Positions 27,575 to 47,837 of a stretch of DNA of 64,000 nt are shown one piece after another. The notes beneath the pieces were generated by a model. The model was not told the DNA's origin. It was given only the letters and a program-made list of their open reading frames with translations, and did not search any database. The position numbers and the translations under genes are program-made. This DNA comes from Synechococcus sp. PCC 7336 (GTDB taxonomy: Bacteria; Cyanobacteriota; Cyanobacteriia; Thermostichales; PCC-7336), in the NCBI RefSeq assembly GCF_000332275.1, contig NZ_CM001776.1, forward strand, positions 4,524,008 to 4,588,007, read 5' to 3'. How positions within the stretch are numbered: position 1 is the first letter of the stretch; every line of letters begins with the position of its first letter.

Positions 27575-29299
27575 TCAGCTCATTTTTTGCTTCAGAAACG
27601 AAATCAGCTGACTGGCCAATCCTCTCGTCAGGCGGCGGCTGGCAATATTGGCGGGAATCTCCACCCCCTGAGCGTCGTAAAACTCCCGTAAAGCTTCAGC
27701 CGATTCAATGTGTTGGAGCTGTTCCATCACCTGCCGATACAACTCTGGTTCGTCGGGTTCGATGCGACGCAGGAGGCTGCGAATATAGCTTTGTTGCATT
27801 TCGGTAGCAGGACGATCGCGCCAATCTGCAGCTCGGTCTAGCAATATTGTCGCAAATCGCAAATGGCGATCGATCCAGGCATCGGCAATTTCAACCAGAT
27901 GTTGCAAGGCGGGGGCTGCTGCCAGTTCTTTCAGCTTGTATTTGCTGACGTGAACTAGACTCGCTCCCGTATCGGCAGTGTAATGAATTTGCAGCAGGTC
28001 GCCACCATATTTGGGTTCCTGCTCGGGAATTTTGAGAAACCAACTGCCTTTCGCCAGAGGCGTCCACTCGAACCGACCGGGCAATGTGGCCTCCGCCGAC
28101 AGGAGCAAATCTACAATCTCCACATCCATCCGATGCAGCAAATTTGCTTCTCGCTGCAAGCGCTCGATCTCCGCTCGCTCTTTTTCTTTCACCCGCTGAC
28201 AGACGCCCACCTGCGATAAATCGGTTCGGGCTGCCAAGCCAAATAGTTTGTGAACCGTTTGGATGTTGTGCCGCCTCGTGTTGTCCGCAATATCGATAAT
28301 CAGACAGTCAGTTTTGCCGTCAGCTTTGCGAGTCCCGCGCCCCAGTGTTTGGGTAAACAGCAGGGAAGACTGGGTGGGACGGGCCATAATTAAACACTGC
28401 AGATGTGGATAATCCCACCCTTCTGTCAGGACGAGACAATTGGTCAGAATTGGCAATTGCCCCGCTTGAAACTGCGCGATCGCCGCCTGTCGATCGCCCC
28501 TCGACTGCCGCCCGCTCACCGTTGCCGCCGCAATCCCAAATTGCCGAAAGGTTTCTGCCACCTGCAGCGCATGTTGCACCGAGACGCAATACACCACCGC
28601 CTGCCGCCCCTCTCCATAGCGCATCCACCCTTCCACGATCGACTGGTTGCGAGCGCTAGTGTTAACCGCTTTCTCCAACTCCCCCACCACAAAATCCCCC
28701 TGTCGCGATCGCACTCCATCTAAGTCCAGCTCCGTCTGCAAGCGCACGGCCCGCAAATCGCAGAGATAGTCGGGAATCAAGTCGGGCAGCGATCGCGTAA
28801 AACACAATTCCTCAAACACTTCCCCCAATCCCACCCGTTTATCCCGCTCGGGCGTGGCGGTCACCCCCAGGCATTTCGCGCCCGCAGAGGTGAGGCGATC
28901 GATCGTCAGTTGCCAACTGCGGGCAGGGGCATGATGGGCTTCGTCCACCACTACTAAGCCGATCGCAGCGGGATCGATGCGATCGAGTCGGCGATACAGC
29001 GATGGAATACTGGCCACCACCACTTGCTTATCCAACTCCTCCCGCTGCCGCTGCACGATGCCAATCTCGACTTGAGGCCACACCTGCTGAATTTTGGCAA
29101 CAGCCTGTTGCAATAATTCTTGACGGTGAACCAGGACAAACCCCTGCCTGCTCTGACCCCGCAAGCGCTGCTTTAGCAGATGGGCGAAGACAATCGTCTT
29201 ACCGGACCCCGTCGCCATTTGAACGAGGGTGCGATCGCAGTGCTCCCAACTGGACTCGATCGCGGCGATCGCTAACGTTTGGTAAGGTCTGAGCTGCAT
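27575..29299 (-). CDS. DEAD/DEAH-box helicase (type III restriction res-like)
   Basis: About 574 residues. Motif I MATGSGKTIVFAHLL, motif II DEAH in VVVDEAHHAP, motif III VTATPERD, motif V LTEGWDYPHL, and motif VI TQTLGRGTRK are all present. This is the SF2 fold of the SSL2/ResIII group. The C-terminal third, with a domain around GRFEWTPLAKGSWFLKIPEQEPKYGG, is unassigned. ATG 29299 is preferred to the upstream TTG. No methylase or restriction partner is adjacent, so a repair or transcription-linked role is likely. Confidence 0.88.
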   Translation of the reverse strand: MQLRPYQTLAIAAIESSWEHCDRTLVQMATGSGKTIVFAHLLKQRLRGQSRQGFVLVHRQELLQQAVAKIQQVWPQVEIGIVQRQREELDKQVVVASIPSLYRRLDRIDPAAIGLVVVDEAHHAPARSWQLTIDRLTSAGAKCLGVTATPERDKRVGLGEVFEELCFTRSLPDLIPDYLCDLRAVRLQTELDLDGVRSRQGDFVVGELEKAVNTSARNQSIVEGWMRYGEGRQAVVYCVSVQHALQVAETFRQFGIAAATVSGRQSRGDRQAAIAQFQAGQLPILTNCLVLTEGWDYPHLQCLIMARPTQSSLLFTQTLGRGTRKADGKTDCLIIDIADNTRRHNIQTVHKLFGLAARTDLSQVGVCQRVKEKERAEIERLQREANLLHRMDVEIVDLLLSAEATLPGRFEWTPLAKGSWFLKIPEQEPKYGGDLLQIHYTADTGASLVHVSKYKLKELAAAPALQHLVEIADAWIDRHLRFATILLDRAADWRDRPATEMQQSYIRSLLRRIEPDEPELYRQVMEQLQHIESAEALREFYDAQGVEIPANIASRRLTRGLASQLISFLKQKMS

Positions 29300-29481
29300 T
29301 CCATCAGAAAAAATCCCCCCCAAAATGTAACTCGACTGGGTTTCGGTCCGCTATCAGACATCGCTGGCGCACGGGCAGCTCCGATCTGTTGAAAGTTAGG
29401 CAGTAAAGTAGGGCATTACCCTGTCAGTTGCTCAATTTCAATCGTTTGCAATCCGCTGTATTTGCCAAGAGGATTTCGATC

Positions 29482-37277: not shown

Positions 37278-38000
37278 ATGAATGATATTAGCGACAGCAA
37301 GGAATTATTTGATTACTGGCACAAGAGGGTCAGGCTAAAGAATGCCCCTCTTATATCTGCACCCGATCATATCCCTACACAAGAACTTCGACATGAATGC
37401 ACCAACTATGACTCGTTACGAGTTAGTAATGAAGTGCAGATTTTAGAAGAACCTGAAAGAAGTCAGGTCATTGCTGTAATTAAATATCAATGTACTGCGC
37501 AAGTATTGCAGCGTAGATCGGGACTCCTAAGAGAAAAAGCAAATCAACTCGAAGATGCCTGCTATGAACTTGAAAGAGAAAGGTCCAGGCTTGGAAGACT
37601 AATTAGACAGCTACAGGAGAAACTCTTCGGAAAGGACAGCGAGATACGAAGGCTCGAAAATCGTATTCTAGCTCTAGAGGCAGAAAATGAAGCTTTGAGA
37701 TCGGACAGTGCAAAAGATGGCGCATATAAAGAGCTAGAGAAAGAATTTGATAAACTACAGAAGAAATACGAGAGTGAGGTAAAAAGAAGGGAAGAGCTAG
37801 GCAGGAACAATCAGAGATTAGGTGGAAGAGTTTCCCATGCAAAAAGAAATAAGGAGAAACTTGAAAGAGCTAGAGTTGAGAACAAGGAGCTTCGTAATAA
37901 GTTAGATCGTTCGATCGAGCAGAAAGAGTCTCTTGAGGAAGAATTAGCTCGACTTCGCAAACAGTTAAAGTTAGGCATAATCGAGGTCAAGCCAAAATGA
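37278..38000 (+). CDS. Coiled-coil protein of unknown function (gene 1 of a pair)
   Basis: 240 residues. The N-terminal 75 residues form a mixed region (RHECTNYDSLRVSNEVQIL then SQVIAVIKYQCTAQVLQ) that I cannot assign. From about 78 to 230 it is a near-continuous coiled coil with charged heptads (QLEDACYELERERSRLGRLI, EIRRLENRILALEAENEAL). No membrane segment or catalytic motif is seen. Its stop overlaps the start of the next gene (ATGA), so the two are co-translated. Base composition is clearly more AT-rich than flanking genes, suggesting transfer. Confidence 0.75.
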   Translation: MNDISDSKELFDYWHKRVRLKNAPLISAPDHIPTQELRHECTNYDSLRVSNEVQILEEPERSQVIAVIKYQCTAQVLQRRSGLLREKANQLEDACYELERERSRLGRLIRQLQEKLFGKDSEIRRLENRILALEAENEALRSDSAKDGAYKELEKEFDKLQKKYESEVKRREELGRNNQRLGGRVSHAKRNKEKLERARVENKELRNKLDRSIEQKESLEEELARLRKQLKLGIIEVKPK

Positions 38001-38392
38001 AAATGGCTGAGCTAAAGCAAAAAGTCTATAAACTAGCAAAAGTTGAAAGCACGAATCAGCTAAAATCAAAGTATCAGGATTTCAGAAAATTAGATATGCG
38101 TCGTAAGCAATCGTGGAAAGATGCCTTCGTAATTTTAGTTGAGAGAAACAAAGAATTTGATTCATGGGTCAAGAATCCGCCTGATGAATATAAAGAAATT
38201 TTTGTCGATATTGAATCAACACTCCAGGATTTTGACTTAAAGCTAGACAAGGCAAATAAACTAAGAAAAATCGTCTCACAGTCAGCTGACGACCTAGAAA
38301 GACTTGCTGAGGAATATGATGATGAAGCCTTAGATTTACTTAAAGAAATAAAGTCTAGAGGAATCATTGAAAGGAAGGCTAATTTGAATTGA
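37997..38392 (+). CDS. Unknown helical protein (gene 2 of a pair)
   Basis: 131 residues, mostly charged helix: MAELKQKVYKLAKVESTNQL, MRRKQSWKDAFVILVERN, WVKNPPDEYKEIFVDI, LDKANKLRKIVSQSADDL. It starts four bases inside the first gene. I do not recognise the family. The overlap, shared AT bias and shared helical character suggest the two proteins form a complex. They sit in an island with a transposon-derived repeat and a broken nucleotidyltransferase gene. Confidence 0.72.
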   Translation: MKMAELKQKVYKLAKVESTNQLKSKYQDFRKLDMRRKQSWKDAFVILVERNKEFDSWVKNPPDEYKEIFVDIESTLQDFDLKLDKANKLRKIVSQSADDLERLAEEYDDEALDLLKEIKSRGIIERKANLN

Positions 38393-40203: not shown

Positions 40204-41754
40204 TCAGCCCCGAATCACGATCGCCTGGCGATCGCTAGGCGTCAATGCCTGCTCAGTCATCGTGCGTTCCGCAATCGGAGGCAGTCCTTCACGTCGGTCA
40301 AAAATCACCAGCCAGCCCGTATCGAGTCCCAACCCAGCCAGGTAGCGATCCAACTGCCTCAACCCCGCCTTGAGGGGATCGGGACGACCCTCTCGCCACA
40401 CCTTCAACTCCATCCCCAGCGTGACATCTCCATAGCGCAGACACAGATCCATTCGATCGGTCCCAATGGCATATTCCCGCTCTAGCGTGCCGCCGCCATT
40501 CACCACCCGATGCAAAAACGCCATCAGCACCAGATGGGGCGCAATCTCGTGGTAAGGCGCACTTTTGAGTAGCGGTTCCCCATGCTGCCGCCAAAAGCTC
40601 AGAAACGCCTGCAACAGTTGCTGCGGGTCGAGTGTTCCTGCGGGGGTTAACCAACTGGGAGAAATTTGCGGTAAGGACGCTTGCGCAGTCCGGCTGAGTA
40701 CCCGAGGTAATACCTCTTGGTAGATGGGATTAGCGATCTCCAGCCCTCCCTGTGGACTGATGCGACACAAGCCCAAGTCAATTAGGAATTGCACGTCATC
40801 ACTGGGGATGTCCCCCAATTCCCGACCGGCTAGCATGGGTTCGATAATGGCTCTGACCCGGTCTTCGAGCAGAATACTGGCCAAACTATCCAGGTGAGTA
40901 TCCTGTCGTTGAATCAAAATTTCCTTGGCTTGCTCCACCTGTTCGGGGGCGATCGCCTGTTGCGGCTCCGGCACCAGAACTTCTACCATCTGTCGGGCCA
41001 GGGCATTCACCAACCAGGGTTGCCCCTGGGTCAACTCAAAGGCCCGTTGGATGGCTTCGGCTGCAAAAACTTGTCCGGTCTCGGCAGTGTGTTGCCCGTA
41101 TAGCTCGGCCACTTCTGCCTGGGTAAAGTTGCGCAGGGTCAAGGATTCCACCTTGATATTGAAAGGGCTAGCGGTGTTGAGGCGATTGCTGCCCCCAGAG
41201 GCCACTTTGTAATCCCGCACATCTCGCACCCCAATCAGTGCCAGAGCATGGGGGAATCCTTGAGGTCGCTTCGGATAGCCATTGCGTAGCTGCCGCAATA
41301 CGGAAATTAAGCTTTCATCCTGCAGTGAGTCAATTTCATCAATGAATACAACCAGCGGACGCGAGGACTGTTGCGCCCAAGTACTCAGCGCTGCTCCAAT
41401 CTGTCGCCCCGGCTCAGACGCAGGCCAATCGGGCGGATGGAGATCGGAGGGCAGCCAAAAGGCGATGTCATCTTTCCAGGCGTCGAGGATGGCTTTTTCA
41501 GCCGCCCCTGGATCGTGGGGGAAAGCGGCTCCGACTTCTGCCGATACCATGACGGCGGTATACTGCCCGCTAGCCGTCAACTGTTGAGCTAGCGCCAACA
41601 TTGCAGTAGTTTTGCCAGTTTGCCGGGGGGCATGGATGACAAAGTAACCCTGCTGCGCGATCGTCCGATTGACTTGGGGGAGCCTAGCCAGAGGCGAGAG
41701 CATGTAGTGAATATCTGCTTTGCAAGGGCCAGCAGTGTTAAACCATTTGGGCAT
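40204..41754 (-). CDS. AAA ATPase fused to PD-(D/E)XK nuclease domain, array copy 1
   Basis: 516 residues from ATG 41754 (MPKWFNTAGPCKADIHYML, the family's usual start). The AAA_35-like ATPase has Walker A HAPRQTGKTT (41-50) and Walker B VVFIDEIDSL (about 135-144), then GVRDVRDYKVASGGSNRL and a winged-helix-like region. The C-terminal 100 residues contain D436 in GTDRMDL and E449-x-K451 in MELKVW, a PD-(D/E)XK nuclease core. The family is common in cyanobacteria but of unknown role; anti-invader activity is possible. It is one of three tandem copies, repeated every 1,624 bases. Confidence 0.82.
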   Translation of the reverse strand: MPKWFNTAGPCKADIHYMLSPLARLPQVNRTIAQQGYFVIHAPRQTGKTTAMLALAQQLTASGQYTAVMVSAEVGAAFPHDPGAAEKAILDAWKDDIAFWLPSDLHPPDWPASEPGRQIGAALSTWAQQSSRPLVVFIDEIDSLQDESLISVLRQLRNGYPKRPQGFPHALALIGVRDVRDYKVASGGSNRLNTASPFNIKVESLTLRNFTQAEVAELYGQHTAETGQVFAAEAIQRAFELTQGQPWLVNALARQMVEVLVPEPQQAIAPEQVEQAKEILIQRQDTHLDSLASILLEDRVRAIIEPMLAGRELGDIPSDDVQFLIDLGLCRISPQGGLEIANPIYQEVLPRVLSRTAQASLPQISPSWLTPAGTLDPQQLLQAFLSFWRQHGEPLLKSAPYHEIAPHLVLMAFLHRVVNGGGTLEREYAIGTDRMDLCLRYGDVTLGMELKVWREGRPDPLKAGLRQLDRYLAGLGLDTGWLVIFDRREGLPPIAERTMTEQALTPSDRQAIVIRG

Positions 41755-41827
41755 CGGCAGACAGCCAGCAGGAAATCTTCTCCATCTTACGAGCAACGGC
41801 AGATCCCTGGTTCTGGGCGATCGCCCC

Positions 41828-43378
41828 TCAGCCCCGAATCACGATCGCCAGGCGATCGCCTGGCGTCAATGCCTGCTCAGTCATCGTGCGTTCCGCAATC
41901 GGAGGCAGTCCTTCACGTCGGTCAAAAATCACCAGCCAGCCCGTATCGAGTCCCAACCCAGCCAGGTAGCGATCCAACTGCCTCAACCCCGCCTTGAGGG
42001 GATCGGGACGACCCTCTCGCCACACCTTCAACTCCATCCCCAGCGTGACATCTCCATAGCGCAGACACAGATCCATTCGATCGGTCCCAATGGCATATTC
42101 CCGCTCCAGCGTACCGCCGCCATTCACCACCCGATGCAAAAACGCCATCAGCACCAGATGGGGCGCAATCTCGTGGTAAGGCGCACTTTTGAGTAGCGGT
42201 TCCCCATGCTGCCGCCAAAAGCTCAGAAACGCCTGTAACAGTTGCTGCGGGTCGAGTGTTCCTGCGGGGGTTAACCAACTGGGGTGAATCGCAGGCAAGC
42301 TATCCTGCGAGCCGCTGGCTAATACCCTGGGTAACACTTCTCGGTAAATCGGATTTGCTGGGGTCAGCCCTCCAGCGGGATTTCGTACGACTAGGCCCAA
42401 ATCAATCAAAAACTGTCGGTCATCACTGGGAACATCCCCCAATTCTTGCCCAGCTAGCATCGGTTCCATAACCGCGCGCACGCGCTCCTCTCGCAACACA
42501 CTGGCCAAACTATCCAGGTGAGTATCCTGTCGTTGAATCAAAATTTCCTTGGCTTGCTCCACCTGTTCGGGGGCGATCGCCTGTTGCGGCTCCGGCACAA
42601 GAACTTCTACCATCTGTCGGGCCAGGGCATTCACCAACCAGGGTTGCCCCTGAGTCAACTCAAAGGCCCGTTGGATCGCTTCGGCTGCAAAAACTTGTCC
42701 GGTCTCGGCAGTGTGTTGCCCGTATAGCTCGGCCACCTCCGCCTGGGTAAAGTTGCGCAGGGTCAAGGATTCCACCTTGATATTGAAAGGGCTGGCGGTG
42801 TTGAGGCGGTTGCTGCCCCCAGAGGCCACTTTGTAATCCCGCACATCTCGCACCCCAATCAGTGCCAGAGCATGGGGGAATCCTTGAGGTCGCTTCGGAT
42901 AGCCATTGCGTAGCTGCCGCAATACGGAAATTAAGCTTTCATCCTGCAGTGAGTCAATTTCATCAATGAATACAACCAGCGGACGCGAGGACTGTTGCGC
43001 CCAAGTACTCAGCGCTGCTCCAATCTGTCGCCCCGGCTCAGACGCAGGCCAATCGGGCGGATGGAGATCGGAGGGCAGCCAAAAGGCGATGTCATCTTTC
43101 CAGGCGTCGAGGATGGCTTTTTCAGCCGCCCCTGGATCGTGGGGGAAAGCGGCTCCGACTTCTGCCGATACCATGACGGCGGTATACTGCCCGCTAGCCG
43201 TCAACTGTTGAGCTAGCGCCAACATTGCAGTAGTTTTGCCAGTTTGCCGGGGGGCATGGATAACAAAGTAACCCTGCTGCGCGATCGTCCGATTGACTTG
43301 GGGGAGCCTAGCCAGAGGCGAGAGCATGTAGTGAATATCTGCTTTGCAAGGGCCAGCAGTGTTAAACCATTTGGGCAT
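41828..43378 (-). CDS. AAA ATPase fused to PD-(D/E)XK nuclease domain, array copy 2
   Basis: The same 516-residue architecture as copy 1, separated from it by a 73-base spacer identical to that between copies 2 and 3. Nearly identical to copy 1 except for residues about 294-365, the winged-helix/linker block. Here it reads LASVLREERV instead of LASILLEDRV, and LVVRNPAGGLTPANPIYREV instead of LCRISPQGGLEIANPIYQEV. The nuclease core and ATPase motifs are intact. The block pattern looks like gene conversion from a different donor rather than gradual drift. Confidence 0.82.
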   Translation of the reverse strand: MPKWFNTAGPCKADIHYMLSPLARLPQVNRTIAQQGYFVIHAPRQTGKTTAMLALAQQLTASGQYTAVMVSAEVGAAFPHDPGAAEKAILDAWKDDIAFWLPSDLHPPDWPASEPGRQIGAALSTWAQQSSRPLVVFIDEIDSLQDESLISVLRQLRNGYPKRPQGFPHALALIGVRDVRDYKVASGGSNRLNTASPFNIKVESLTLRNFTQAEVAELYGQHTAETGQVFAAEAIQRAFELTQGQPWLVNALARQMVEVLVPEPQQAIAPEQVEQAKEILIQRQDTHLDSLASVLREERVRAVMEPMLAGQELGDVPSDDRQFLIDLGLVVRNPAGGLTPANPIYREVLPRVLASGSQDSLPAIHPSWLTPAGTLDPQQLLQAFLSFWRQHGEPLLKSAPYHEIAPHLVLMAFLHRVVNGGGTLEREYAIGTDRMDLCLRYGDVTLGMELKVWREGRPDPLKAGLRQLDRYLAGLGLDTGWLVIFDRREGLPPIAERTMTEQALTPGDRLAIVIRG

Positions 43379-43451
43379 CGGCAGACAGCCAGCAGGAAAT
43401 CTTCTCCATCTTACGAGCAACGGCAGATCCCTGGTTCTGGGCGATCGCCCC

Positions 43452-45002
43452 TCAGCCCCGAATCACGATCGCCTGGCGATCGCCTGGCGTCAATGCCTGC
43501 TCAGTCATCGTGCGTTCCGCAATCGGAGGCAGTCCTTCACGTCGGTCAAAAATCACCAGCCAGCCCGTATCGAGTCCCAACCCAGCCAGGTAGCGATCCA
43601 ACTGCCTCAACCCCGCCTTGAGGGGATCGGGACGACCCTCTCGCCACACCTTCAACTCCATCCCCAGCGTGACATCTCCATAGCGCAGACACAGATCCAT
43701 TCGATCGGTCCCAATGGCATATTCCCGCTCCAGCGTACCGCCGCCATTCACCACCCGATGCAAAAACGCCATCAGCACCAGATGGGGCGCAATCTCGTGG
43801 TAAGGCGCACTTTTGAGTAGCGGTTCCCCATGCTGCCGCCAAAAGCTCAGAAACGCCTGCAACAGTTGCTGCGGGTCGAGTGTTCCTGCGGGGGTTAACC
43901 AACTGGGAGGAATTTGCGGTAAGGACGCTTGCGCAGTCCGGCTGAGTACCCGAGGTAATACCTCTTGGTAGATGGAATTAGCGATCTCCAGCCCTCCCTG
44001 TGGACTGATGCGACACAAGCCCAAGTCAATCAGGAATTGCACGTCATCACTGGGGATGTCCCCCAATTCCCGACCGGCTAGCATGGGTTCGATAATGGCT
44101 CTGACCCGGTCTTCGAGCAGAATACTGGCCAAACTATCCAGGTGAGTATCCTGTCGTTGAATCAAAATTTCCTTGGCTTGCTCCACCTGTTCGGGGGCGA
44201 TCGCCTGTTGCGGCTCCGGCACAAGAACTTCCACCATTTGTCGGGCCAGGGCATTCACCAACCAAGGCTGCCCCTGAGTCAACTCAAAGGCCCGTTGGAT
44301 GGCTTCGGCTGCAAAAACTTGTCCGGTCTCAGCAGTGTGTTGCCCGTATAGCTCGGCCACTTCCGCCTGGGTAAAGTTGCGCAGGGTCAAGGATTCCACC
44401 TTGATATTAAAAGGGCTGGCGGTGTTGAGGCGGTTGCTGCCCCCAGAGGCCACTTTGTAATCCCGCACATCTCGTACCCCAATCAGTGCCAGAGCATGGG
44501 GAAATCCTTGAGGGCGGTTGGGATAGCCCGAGCGCAATTGCCGCAAGACGGCAATCAGGGTTTCGTCCCGTAAGGAATCAATTTCATCAATGAAGACTAT
44601 GAGGGGACGGGGAGAATGCTGTGCCCATTCACTCAATGCCTGACCTAGGCGCTGTCCTGCAGCAGCTGGAGGCCACGGTGGAGGCTGGAGATCGGGGGGA
44701 AGCCGAAATTTTGCTGCATTAGTCCAAGCATCGAGAATGGCCGCTTCAGCTGCTCCCGGATCGTGGGGAAAAGCGGCTCCGACTTCTGCTGAGACCATCA
44801 CGGCAGTGTATTGCCCGCTGGCAGTCAACTGTTGTGCCAGCGCCAGCATCGCAGTAGTTTTGCCAGTTTGCCGGGGGGCATGGATGACAAAGTAGCCCTG
44901 CTGCGCGATCGTCCGATGGACTTGGGGAAGCCTAGCCAGGGGGGAGAGCATGTAGTGAATATCTGCTTTGCAAGGACCAGCAGTGTTAAACCATTTGGGC
45001 AT
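43452..45002 (-). CDS. AAA ATPase fused to PD-(D/E)XK nuclease domain, array copy 3
   Basis: Third copy with ATG 45002 (the frame is open to 45098 with unrelated residues). The second half matches copy 1, including the 294-365 block. Residues about 86-160, between Walker A and just after Walker B, differ in a cluster: EAAILDAWTNAAKFRLPPDL and LSEWAQHSPRPLIVFIDEIDSLRDETLIAVL replace the copy 1 and 2 sequence. Catalytic residues remain. Being on the minus strand, it is the first copy to be transcribed and its upstream DNA differs from the other two. Confidence 0.82.
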   Translation of the reverse strand: MPKWFNTAGPCKADIHYMLSPLARLPQVHRTIAQQGYFVIHAPRQTGKTTAMLALAQQLTASGQYTAVMVSAEVGAAFPHDPGAAEAAILDAWTNAAKFRLPPDLQPPPWPPAAAGQRLGQALSEWAQHSPRPLIVFIDEIDSLRDETLIAVLRQLRSGYPNRPQGFPHALALIGVRDVRDYKVASGGSNRLNTASPFNIKVESLTLRNFTQAEVAELYGQHTAETGQVFAAEAIQRAFELTQGQPWLVNALARQMVEVLVPEPQQAIAPEQVEQAKEILIQRQDTHLDSLASILLEDRVRAIIEPMLAGRELGDIPSDDVQFLIDLGLCRISPQGGLEIANSIYQEVLPRVLSRTAQASLPQIPPSWLTPAGTLDPQQLLQAFLSFWRQHGEPLLKSAPYHEIAPHLVLMAFLHRVVNGGGTLEREYAIGTDRMDLCLRYGDVTLGMELKVWREGRPDPLKAGLRQLDRYLAGLGLDTGWLVIFDRREGLPPIAERTMTEQALTPGDRQAIVIRG

Positions 45003-46736: not shown

Positions 46737-47837
46737 TTAGGATGCCGTTGCCGGTCGAACTCCAGATTGACGGTTGGTCTGGTACTTTTTACCCACTGGA
46801 CTTTCGATTGGCTTCATGGCGAAAAGACGCATAAACTGCCAAGCACTACTCGCGTACAGAGGCAGCTTCCGCAGTCCTTTCACGACCTCGGGCGCGTTAG
46901 ACCCATCCACTTCCCGCATGCGATGGACGTTTGCCACGCAGCGATCCAAGCAGGCTTCAAACTCGGGATGCTCCACGTTCAACACTACTGGAAACACCTT
47001 AGAGGAATCGTGGTTGGTCCACTGGATGACATCCAAGTCGTATTCCTTCGGATCGAGCCCCAAAATTTGATAGAACTCGGGACGCATGGCGACATCGTTG
47101 AGATACATCGTGGCGTAGACCGACAGCAGGAAGAAGCGGCACCACAATTTTGCCAGCCAATTGTTGAGGTAACGGGGCTGGCTCTGCATCACCAACGAGA
47201 AGAAATCGCCGTGACGGCTCTCGTCTTGACACCAGTTCTGGAAGAAATTGAAAATTGGGTAAATGCGATTCTCGGGATGCTGCTCTAAGTGGCGGAAGAT
47301 TTTGATGTAGCGCCAGTAGCCGATCTTCTCCGATAGGTATGTGGCATAGAAGATAAAGCGGGGGGCGAACTTGGTGTATTGCTTATTTTTGGTCAAAAAG
47401 CTCAAGTCTAGAGCCAAATCGAAGTCGGCCATCGCCTTATTCAAAAAGCCAGCGTGGCGGGCTTCATCGCGGCTCATGAGCAGAAAACATTCTGCCAGCA
47501 CGGGGCTGGTGTGCTTGAGCTTGCGAGACAGCTCTTTATAAAGTAGGAAACCCGAAAACTCAGCCGTGCAAGAGCGCTCTAAGAATTCCACAAACAGCTT
47601 TTTAGTGCGATCGTCTAGCTCGTCCCAAGACCGATCGAACTCTTCACCTCGCACGAAGTGGTGGCGATTGTAGTCCGTCCGAAACTCTTCCAATAGAGCC
47701 TCAAACTCCTCTGCGCGATCGGAAATATCTAGATTCGCCATCGCCTCGAAGTCAGTGGTATAGAAGCGAGGCGTCAGAATCGTTTCCGTGGGAACCCGAG
47801 CTTGTGTATCGGATTGTTGAGGGGAAGTGGCAACCAT
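46737..47837 (-). CDS. acsF: Mg-protoporphyrin IX monomethyl ester oxidative cyclase
   Basis: 366 residues. Di-iron ligand motifs DEARHAGF and DESRHGDFF mark the AcsF family. It forms the isocyclic ring of chlorophyll in the oxygen-dependent pathway, at the membrane, and needs a partner such as Ycf54 (not in this window). The length is normal. Start is ATG 47837. Confidence 0.97.

What the first reader, a model, noticed from the sequence alone, without database searches (positions are those of the whole stretch)
40204..45002. Three tandem ATPase-nuclease genes with an exact 1,624-bp period
Identical unit length, identical 73-bp spacers and near-identical sequence show recent tandem amplification of an AAA ATPase fused to a PD-(D/E)XK nuclease. 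The family is known in cyanobacteria but has no assigned role. Retention of all catalytic residues in three adjacent copies implies selection for dose or for diversity, as in defence systems.
Basis: partly seen in the sequence, partly recalled or inferred. Interest (0 to 1): 0.8.

Follow-up and report, generated by a model that had tools for sequence, protein, structure and literature searches.

The report
Tandem ATPase-nucleases with shuffled variable modules
Three neighbouring copies of a cyanobacterial ATPase-nuclease gene are nearly identical except in two short internal segments that are exchanged between copies like cassettes; the same two segments vary in this way in many unrelated cyanobacteria, which suggests a recombining set of recognition specificities, probably against foreign DNA elements.

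Summary
The array is real: three 516-aa ORFs, exact 1,624-bp period, identical 73-bp spacers. It is not simply recent amplification. Copies are 87-94% identical and nearly all differences fall in two blocks: V1 (aa ~78-133, between Walker A and Walker B) and V2 (aa ~296-366, winged-helix-like, before the nuclease). There synonymous sites are saturated while the rest is almost identical. Copy C carries B's V1 and A's V2. The same blocks differ in arrays of at least nine other cyanobacteria. V1 and V2 reassort (20 four-gamete cases; 78 and 49 allele classes in 139 copies), are constrained within a class (dN/dS 0.05-0.10), while equally fast control segments are homogenised. At one Pseudanabaena locus copy number runs 0 to 3, and a two-copy state and its exact unequal-crossover product are both found. 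Best reading: two specificity modules on a conserved ATPase-nuclease, shuffled by recombination; works like HsdS target-recognition domains, in an unrelated protein without methylase. Ligand and defence role are inferred; acidic V segments disfavour simple DNA reading.

The parts
43452..45002 (-). copy A, 516 aa ATPase-nuclease, modules V1a + V2-1
41828..43378 (-). copy B, 516 aa, modules V1b + V2-2
40204..41754 (-). copy C, 516 aa, mosaic: V1b (identical to B) + V2-1 (as in A)
43379..43451 (-). 73-bp spacer A to B
41755..41827 (-). 73-bp spacer B to C, identical to spacer A to B
44604..44771 (-). variable module V1 of copy A (aa 78-133, between Walker A and Walker B)
42980..43147 (-). variable module V1 of copy B
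41356..41523 (-). variable module V1 of copy C (same allele as B)
43905..44117 (-). variable module V2 of copy A (aa 296-366, winged-helix-like; family-wide it reaches about aa 384)
42281..42493 (-). variable module V2 of copy B
40657..40869 (-). variable module V2 of copy C (same allele as A)
43452..43805 (-). PD-(D/E)XK nuclease domain of copy A (aa 400-516; E427, D436, E449-x-K451, Q467)
41828..42181 (-). nuclease domain of copy B
40204..40557 (-). nuclease domain of copy C

Best explanation
Each gene encodes a stand-alone AAA-type ATPase - winged helix - PD-(D/E)XK nuclease. Two segments, V1 (in the ATPase, between Walker A and Walker B) and V2 (the winged-helix region), are specificity modules; the rest is a common chassis. 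Homologous recombination between the conserved parts of tandem or dispersed copies (unequal crossing-over, gene conversion) homogenises the chassis, changes copy number and reassorts V1 with V2, so a genome keeps several recognition combinations. SHOWN from sequence: two-block variability in many genomes, reassortment, copy-number change at one locus, purifying selection within each allele. INFERRED: that V1 and V2 bind a variable ligand (more likely a protein or protein-DNA complex of a phage or plasmid than bare DNA, since both are net acidic), that binding switches the ATPase, and that the nuclease then cuts DNA, restricting the invader or killing the cell.
For: Window: A/B synonymous difference is 0.72 in V1 and 0.76 in V2 but 0.00 in the nuclease part and 0.11 in the middle; C shares V1 with B (0.00) and V2 with A (0.02). 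The same blocks dip in arrays of G184, G205, G212, G218, G098, G229, G015, G128 and G358, and in dispersed copies of G142. Of 110 close within-genome pairs, 58 differ in both, 30 in V1 only, 17 in V2 only, 5 in neither; V identities are bimodal with none between 70 and 80%. 20 four-gamete quadruples. Within-allele dN/dS: V1 0.096, V2 0.047, comparable with the backbone. Control segments that vary as much between genomes (aa 251-275, 500-516) are homogenised in close pairs while V1/V2 are not (Wilcoxon p = 0.0003, one pair per genome). Same locus in Pseudanabaena-type genomes, modules as (V1,V2): G108 and G295 empty, G030 (9,1), G150 (1,1), G212 (1,1)(5,1), G218 (1,1)(5,4), G184 (1,1)(5,1)(5,4); the G184 middle copy is the predicted crossover product of the G218 pair. 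Catalytic residues invariant. No conserved partner gene. Patchy distribution (77 of 390 genomes), presence on plasmids and a 66%-identical copy in a myxobacterium point to horizontal transfer.
Against: No direct evidence for ligand, cleavage or phage/plasmid resistance. No PADLOC match for the protein; no clear general enrichment of defence neighbours. In the window the array is not in a defence island. No methylase or antitoxin partner, so self-protection is unexplained. V1-V2 combinations in Pseudanabaena are not perfectly random (mutual information p = 0.015; relatedness not corrected). Outside cyanobacteria the V1 dip is visible but V2 is less clear.
Confidence: 0.55

Rival explanations
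1. Orc1/Cdc6-like bipartite DNA reader: V1 is placed like the initiator-specific motif and V2 is the winged helix, together reading a DNA site that the fused nuclease cuts; a restriction-like or plasmid-targeting enzyme with interchangeable half-site specificities.
For: Fold matches of the model to archaeal ATPases 2qen and 2fna and to Cdc6/Orc1 on DNA 2qby. The V1 centre lies at the spacing of the ISM from Walker A and B given for Orc1-2 (K72, G127/L128, E154), whose ISM and wH residues are needed for specific DNA binding (PMC9738581). The two-module logic equals HsdS.
Against: V1, the V1 loop, V2 and the recognition-helix/wing region are net acidic on average (-1.9, -1.7, -2.6, -2.6). No methylase to protect self. 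Model confidence moderate (pLDDT 79) and no coordinates could be superposed.
Confidence: 0.22
2. Passive explanation: old paralogues whose fastest-evolving segments escaped gene conversion; no selection for diversity.
For: Conversion needs similarity, so diverged blocks resist it; V1 is also among the most variable parts between genomes.
Against: Equally variable segments (aa 251-275, 500-516) are homogenised in the same pairs. The alleles themselves are constrained (dN/dS 0.05-0.10) and reassort, so conversion and crossing-over do move whole V blocks.
Confidence: 0.13
3. Orthogonality: V1 and V2 form oligomer contacts, and divergence stops paralogues from mixing.
For: V1 lies in the ATPase core, where subunit contacts are possible; paralogues co-occur in cells.
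Against: V1 and V2 reassort, and copies sharing one module coexist in one array (A/C share V2, B/C share V1), which would not insulate them.
Confidence: 0.06
4. Selfish element: the nuclease promotes its own spread (homing-like), and repeated cleavage and repair cause the arrays, dispersion and conversion.
For: 12 dispersed full copies plus fragments in the 3.76-Mb genome G142; presence/absence at one locus; plasmid copies; tyrosine recombinase directly downstream of some copies.
Against: No terminal repeats or long constant flanks recognised around dispersed copies; no fixed insertion site; two constrained, reassorting modules are not expected of a single-site homing enzyme.
Confidence: 0.04

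Closest known systems
Pfam AAA_35 (PF14516), NCBI 'AAA-like domain-containing protein / ATP-binding protein'
   Same: ATPase domain matches above the family cut-off; relatives carry these names in public records.
   Different: The annotation covers only the ATPase; no role is assigned and the two-module variation is not mentioned in what I could search.
DUF1703-type proteins: AAA-ATPase_like (PF09820) + PDDEXK_9 (PF08011)
   Same: Same order of ATPase and PD-(D/E)XK nuclease, patchy distribution, multi-copy expansions with intragenic recombination (25 paralogues in Cardinium cCpun, PMC6387759); function unknown.
   Different: No match to either Pfam model. In cCpun no homogenisation was seen; here the chassis is homogenised and two blocks are not.
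Type I restriction specificity subunit HsdS (TRD1/TRD2 shuffling; PMC3077401)
   Same: Two variable modules separated by conserved repeats, reassorted by recombination within and between loci.
   Different: Unrelated protein; here variable modules, ATPase and nuclease are in one polypeptide and there is no methylase.
Orc1/Cdc6 and archaeal ATPases PABY2304 (2qen), SSO1545 (2fna)
   Same: Predicted AAA + winged-helix fold.
   Different: Extra nuclease domain; hypervariable ISM-like and winged-helix positions; those segments net acidic.

Membership tests
AAA_35 (PF14516) | score above Pfam gathering cut-off | tested here: met
   33.0-35.6 bits against cut-off 27 for A, B, C
AAA_35 (PF14516) | intact Walker A and Walker B | tested here: met
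   APRQTGKT and VFIDEID; invariant K48, D139, E140
PD-(D/E)XK nuclease | D...E-x-K core motif with conserved neighbours | tested here: met
   E427, D436, E449-x-K451, Q467 invariant; strand/helix order of the model fits
PD-(D/E)XK nuclease | nuclease activity | not testable with these tools
   no biochemistry
DUF1703 (PF09820 + PF08011) | match to the two Pfam models | tested here: not met
   neither listed at E <= 1
Type I HsdS | homology to HsdS / type I specificity domain | tested here: not met
   no such Pfam, NCBIfam or PADLOC match
Type I HsdS | methylase partner | tested here: not met
   no conserved neighbour among the loci compared
Type I HsdS | two variable modules reassorting through conserved flanks (works like) | tested here: met
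Orc1/Cdc6 | AAA + winged-helix fold | tested here: met
   Foldseek E 2e-8 to 2qby, but TM-score by query only 0.36
Orc1/Cdc6 | initiator-specific motif at the V1 position | tested here: inconclusive
   spacing agrees with PMC9738581; no superposition possible
Orc1/Cdc6 | basic DNA-binding surface | tested here: not met
   V1, V2 and wing net acidic; sequence charge only
Known anti-phage defence systems (PADLOC) | match to a defence model | tested here: not met
   only weak P-loop-level hits, best E 7e-4
Known anti-phage defence systems (PADLOC) | location in defence islands | tested here: inconclusive
   dndC, DISARM, Dnd-associated and cas6 genes beside some copies, but no clear general enrichment

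The most novel reading that the evidence does not exclude
A single-protein immune repertoire: cyanobacteria keep tandem and dispersed sets of one ATPase-nuclease whose two recognition modules are exchanged as cassettes between copies, so that new specificities against phages or plasmids arise by recombination, as in shuffled HsdS genes but with recognition, ATPase and nuclease in one protein and no modification enzyme.
Probability: 0.4. Interest if true: 0.88.

Novelty: new variant of a known kind. Interest (0 to 1): 0.72.

Why it matters
ATPase-PD-(D/E)XK fusions are common, often multi-copy and without assigned role. A conserved chassis with two constrained, reassorting modules says where specificity lies and what to swap, which makes the function testable. 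If the modules recognise invaders, this is a second evolutionary route to HsdS-like combinatorial diversity, in a one-gene system present in about a fifth of the sampled genomes of this cyanobacterial class (77 of 390).

Tried and rejected
Recent simple triplication: rejected, V blocks saturated at synonymous sites. Assembly artefact: rejected, copies differ and arrays recur, some in single-contig genomes. Partner gene (methylase, antitoxin): none conserved among the loci compared. Phage-borne gene: no hit in phage records or viral contigs (the viral-contig scan finds only close relatives). Solved homologue by sequence: none. Single unequal crossover for the window array: does not fit the order A(a,1) B(b,2) C(b,1); triplication plus conversion is needed, whereas the Pseudanabaena array fits the crossover exactly. 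Empty site of the window locus: order relatives keep the gene pair upstream (46737-47837 and the M50 protease) but not the downstream gene, so no clean empty site. Defence-island enrichment by PADLOC on 121 neighbours against 39 window genes: no clear excess. Cross-genus cassette transfer by third-position identity: the top hits were same-genus copies under other labels, so not claimed at nucleotide level. The '89 genomes / 166 copies' included duplicates and was corrected to 62 genomes and 139 copies. Literature on AAA_35 and on tandem nuclease mosaics gave nothing specific; most subscription journals are not held.

Full report
OBSERVATION. The three genes are there as described: A 45002-43452, B 43378-41828, C 41754-40204 on the - strand, each 516 aa, exact 1,624-bp period, identical 73-bp spacers. 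The genome is one contig of 5,066,637 bp and has no further full copy. The protein is an AAA-type ATPase (PF14516 above cut-off) with a C-terminal PD-(D/E)XK-type motif; P-loop, Walker B and nuclease residues are invariant across the family. No NCBIfam model and no PADLOC model matches meaningfully, and no solved structure is found by sequence.

NOT PLAIN AMPLIFICATION. Positions unique to A lie almost all in nt 1-840 (110 of 111), and those unique to B almost all after nt 840 (83 of 86); the order is far from random (10 runs against 98 expected). In blocks: V1 A/B synonymous difference 0.72, B/C 0.00; V2 A/B 0.76, A/C 0.02; nuclease part 0.00-0.03 in all pairs (where V1 was cut as aa 80-130 and V2 as 300-365). 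So two blocks are old alleles, and everything else has been largely homogenised. C is a mosaic of B in front and A behind.

THE SAME TWO BLOCKS EVERYWHERE. The family is found in 77 of 390 sampled genomes of the class, patchily, often multi-copy: 12 full dispersed copies in G142, 7 in G295, 8 collected in G015. Tandem arrays recur (three copies in G184 and G015; pairs in G205, G212, G218, G098, G229). In all of these, and in more widely spaced pairs of G128, G358 and G142, divergence concentrates in one or both of V1 and V2 while the flanks are much more alike, mostly 85-100%. One exception is the pair L133_10310/L133_15201, which differs mainly at the N-terminus.

MODULES REASSORT. At 85% aa identity 139 distinct copies from 62 genomes hold 78 V1 and 49 V2 classes, with 94 combinations and 20 four-gamete quadruples. 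In 110 close within-genome pairs, identity in V1 and V2 is bimodal; 58 pairs differ in both, 30 in V1 only, 17 in V2 only, 5 in neither.

LIVE LOCUS. G108 and G295 have no copy, G030 and G150 one, G205, G212 and G218 two, G184 three, with flanks about 88-98% identical. With module classes written (V1,V2), G218 is (1,1)(5,4) and G184 is (1,1)(5,1)(5,4): the additional middle copy is exactly the product expected of unequal crossing-over between the two. The window array needs one further conversion step.

SELECTION. Within an allele class between genomes dN/dS is 0.096 (V1) and 0.047 (V2), comparable with the backbone at 0.05-0.11, so the modules are functional, not degenerate. A passive 'fast segments escape conversion' model predicts that other fast segments escape too. 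Segments 251-275 and 500-516 vary as much between genomes (52-53% identity against 49-62% in V1/V2) but are homogenised in close pairs; V1/V2 exceed these controls in 17 of 18 genomes (Wilcoxon p = 0.0003). That is the strongest argument for selected diversity.

STRUCTURE. The AlphaFold2 model (10 sequences, mean pLDDT 79) shows an ATPase core (beta strands 37-41, 66-71, 134-139, 170-174), a helical lid, a winged-helix-like segment (298-340) and a nuclease-like alpha/beta domain. Best PDB folds are archaeal ATPases PABY2304 and SSO1545, Cdc6/Orc1 on DNA, RuvB and clamp loaders, at modest TM-scores. V1 lies between strand 66-71 and the Walker B strand, where Orc1/Cdc6 proteins carry the initiator-specific motif (spacing from PMC9738581); V2 is the winged helix. 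In Orc1-2 both contribute to specific DNA binding. Against a DNA reader, V1 and V2 are net acidic. I therefore favour a protein or protein-DNA ligand and keep the DNA reader as the main rival.

CONTEXT. There is no conserved neighbour among the loci compared: a solo gene. Complete Pseudanabaena plasmids carry copies next to DISARM, Dnd-associated and ubiquitin-like/cas6 genes, and several next to a tyrosine recombinase. PADLOC matches among 121 neighbours are not clearly more frequent than among 39 window genes. The window array lies behind the gene pair 47837-46737 and M50 protease, conserved in order relatives that lack the array. Copies outside cyanobacteria (Allochromatium, Hyalangium, others) indicate wide horizontal spread; there the V1 dip persists and V2 is weaker.

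WHAT IS KNOWN. DUF1703 proteins (ATPase + PDDEXK_9) are the closest architecture, also multi-copy and recombining with unknown role (PMC6387759), but their models do not match here. HsdS genes are the closest analogue of the recombination logic (PMC3077401). I found no description of two reassorting modules in this ATPase-nuclease family in the held library.

VERDICT. Array and two-module reassortment: shown (about 0.9). Modules as specificity determinants: likely (about 0.75). Immune role: plausible (about 0.5). Nature of the ligand: open.

Noticed in passing
L104, L105, L106, L108 (G142); L127/L029 (G312): In G142, which has 12 dispersed full copies, five copies lie beside psbA genes or, in L106, run directly into a 3' psbA remnant; one copy in another genus is also near psbA. 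psbA repeats may have spread the gene, or the association may mean more.
   Followed up: partly
L198 (pPg_03), L200 (ABRG53b), L056:11564-12505: A tyrosine recombinase of about 313 aa starts about 12 bp downstream of the ATPase-nuclease on two Pseudanabaena plasmids and on a third Pseudanabaena contig: a possible two-gene module.
   Followed up: partly
L115:8838-10478 and the same locus in G030, G150, G212, G218: The Pseudanabaena array sits directly beside a dndC-like gene (DNA phosphorothioation); copy number at this locus ranges from 0 to 3 between genomes.
   Followed up: yes
L059 (Hyalangium versicolor): A 66%-identical, frameshifted copy in a myxobacterium, with several more distant paralogues in that genome: cross-phylum transfer and decay.
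   Followed up: partly
G000:C1:2152343-2152422 (L004): An 80-bp, 82%-identical match to the nuclease region elsewhere in the window's own genome, probably a relic of a lost copy.
   Followed up: partly
window 37278-38392 +: Two adjacent coiled-coil-like ORFs (240 and 131 aa) without a convincing family match.
   Followed up: no
window 27575-29323 -: 582-aa protein with matches to type IV/type I restriction models (E 1e-31); probably a generic helicase.
   Followed up: no
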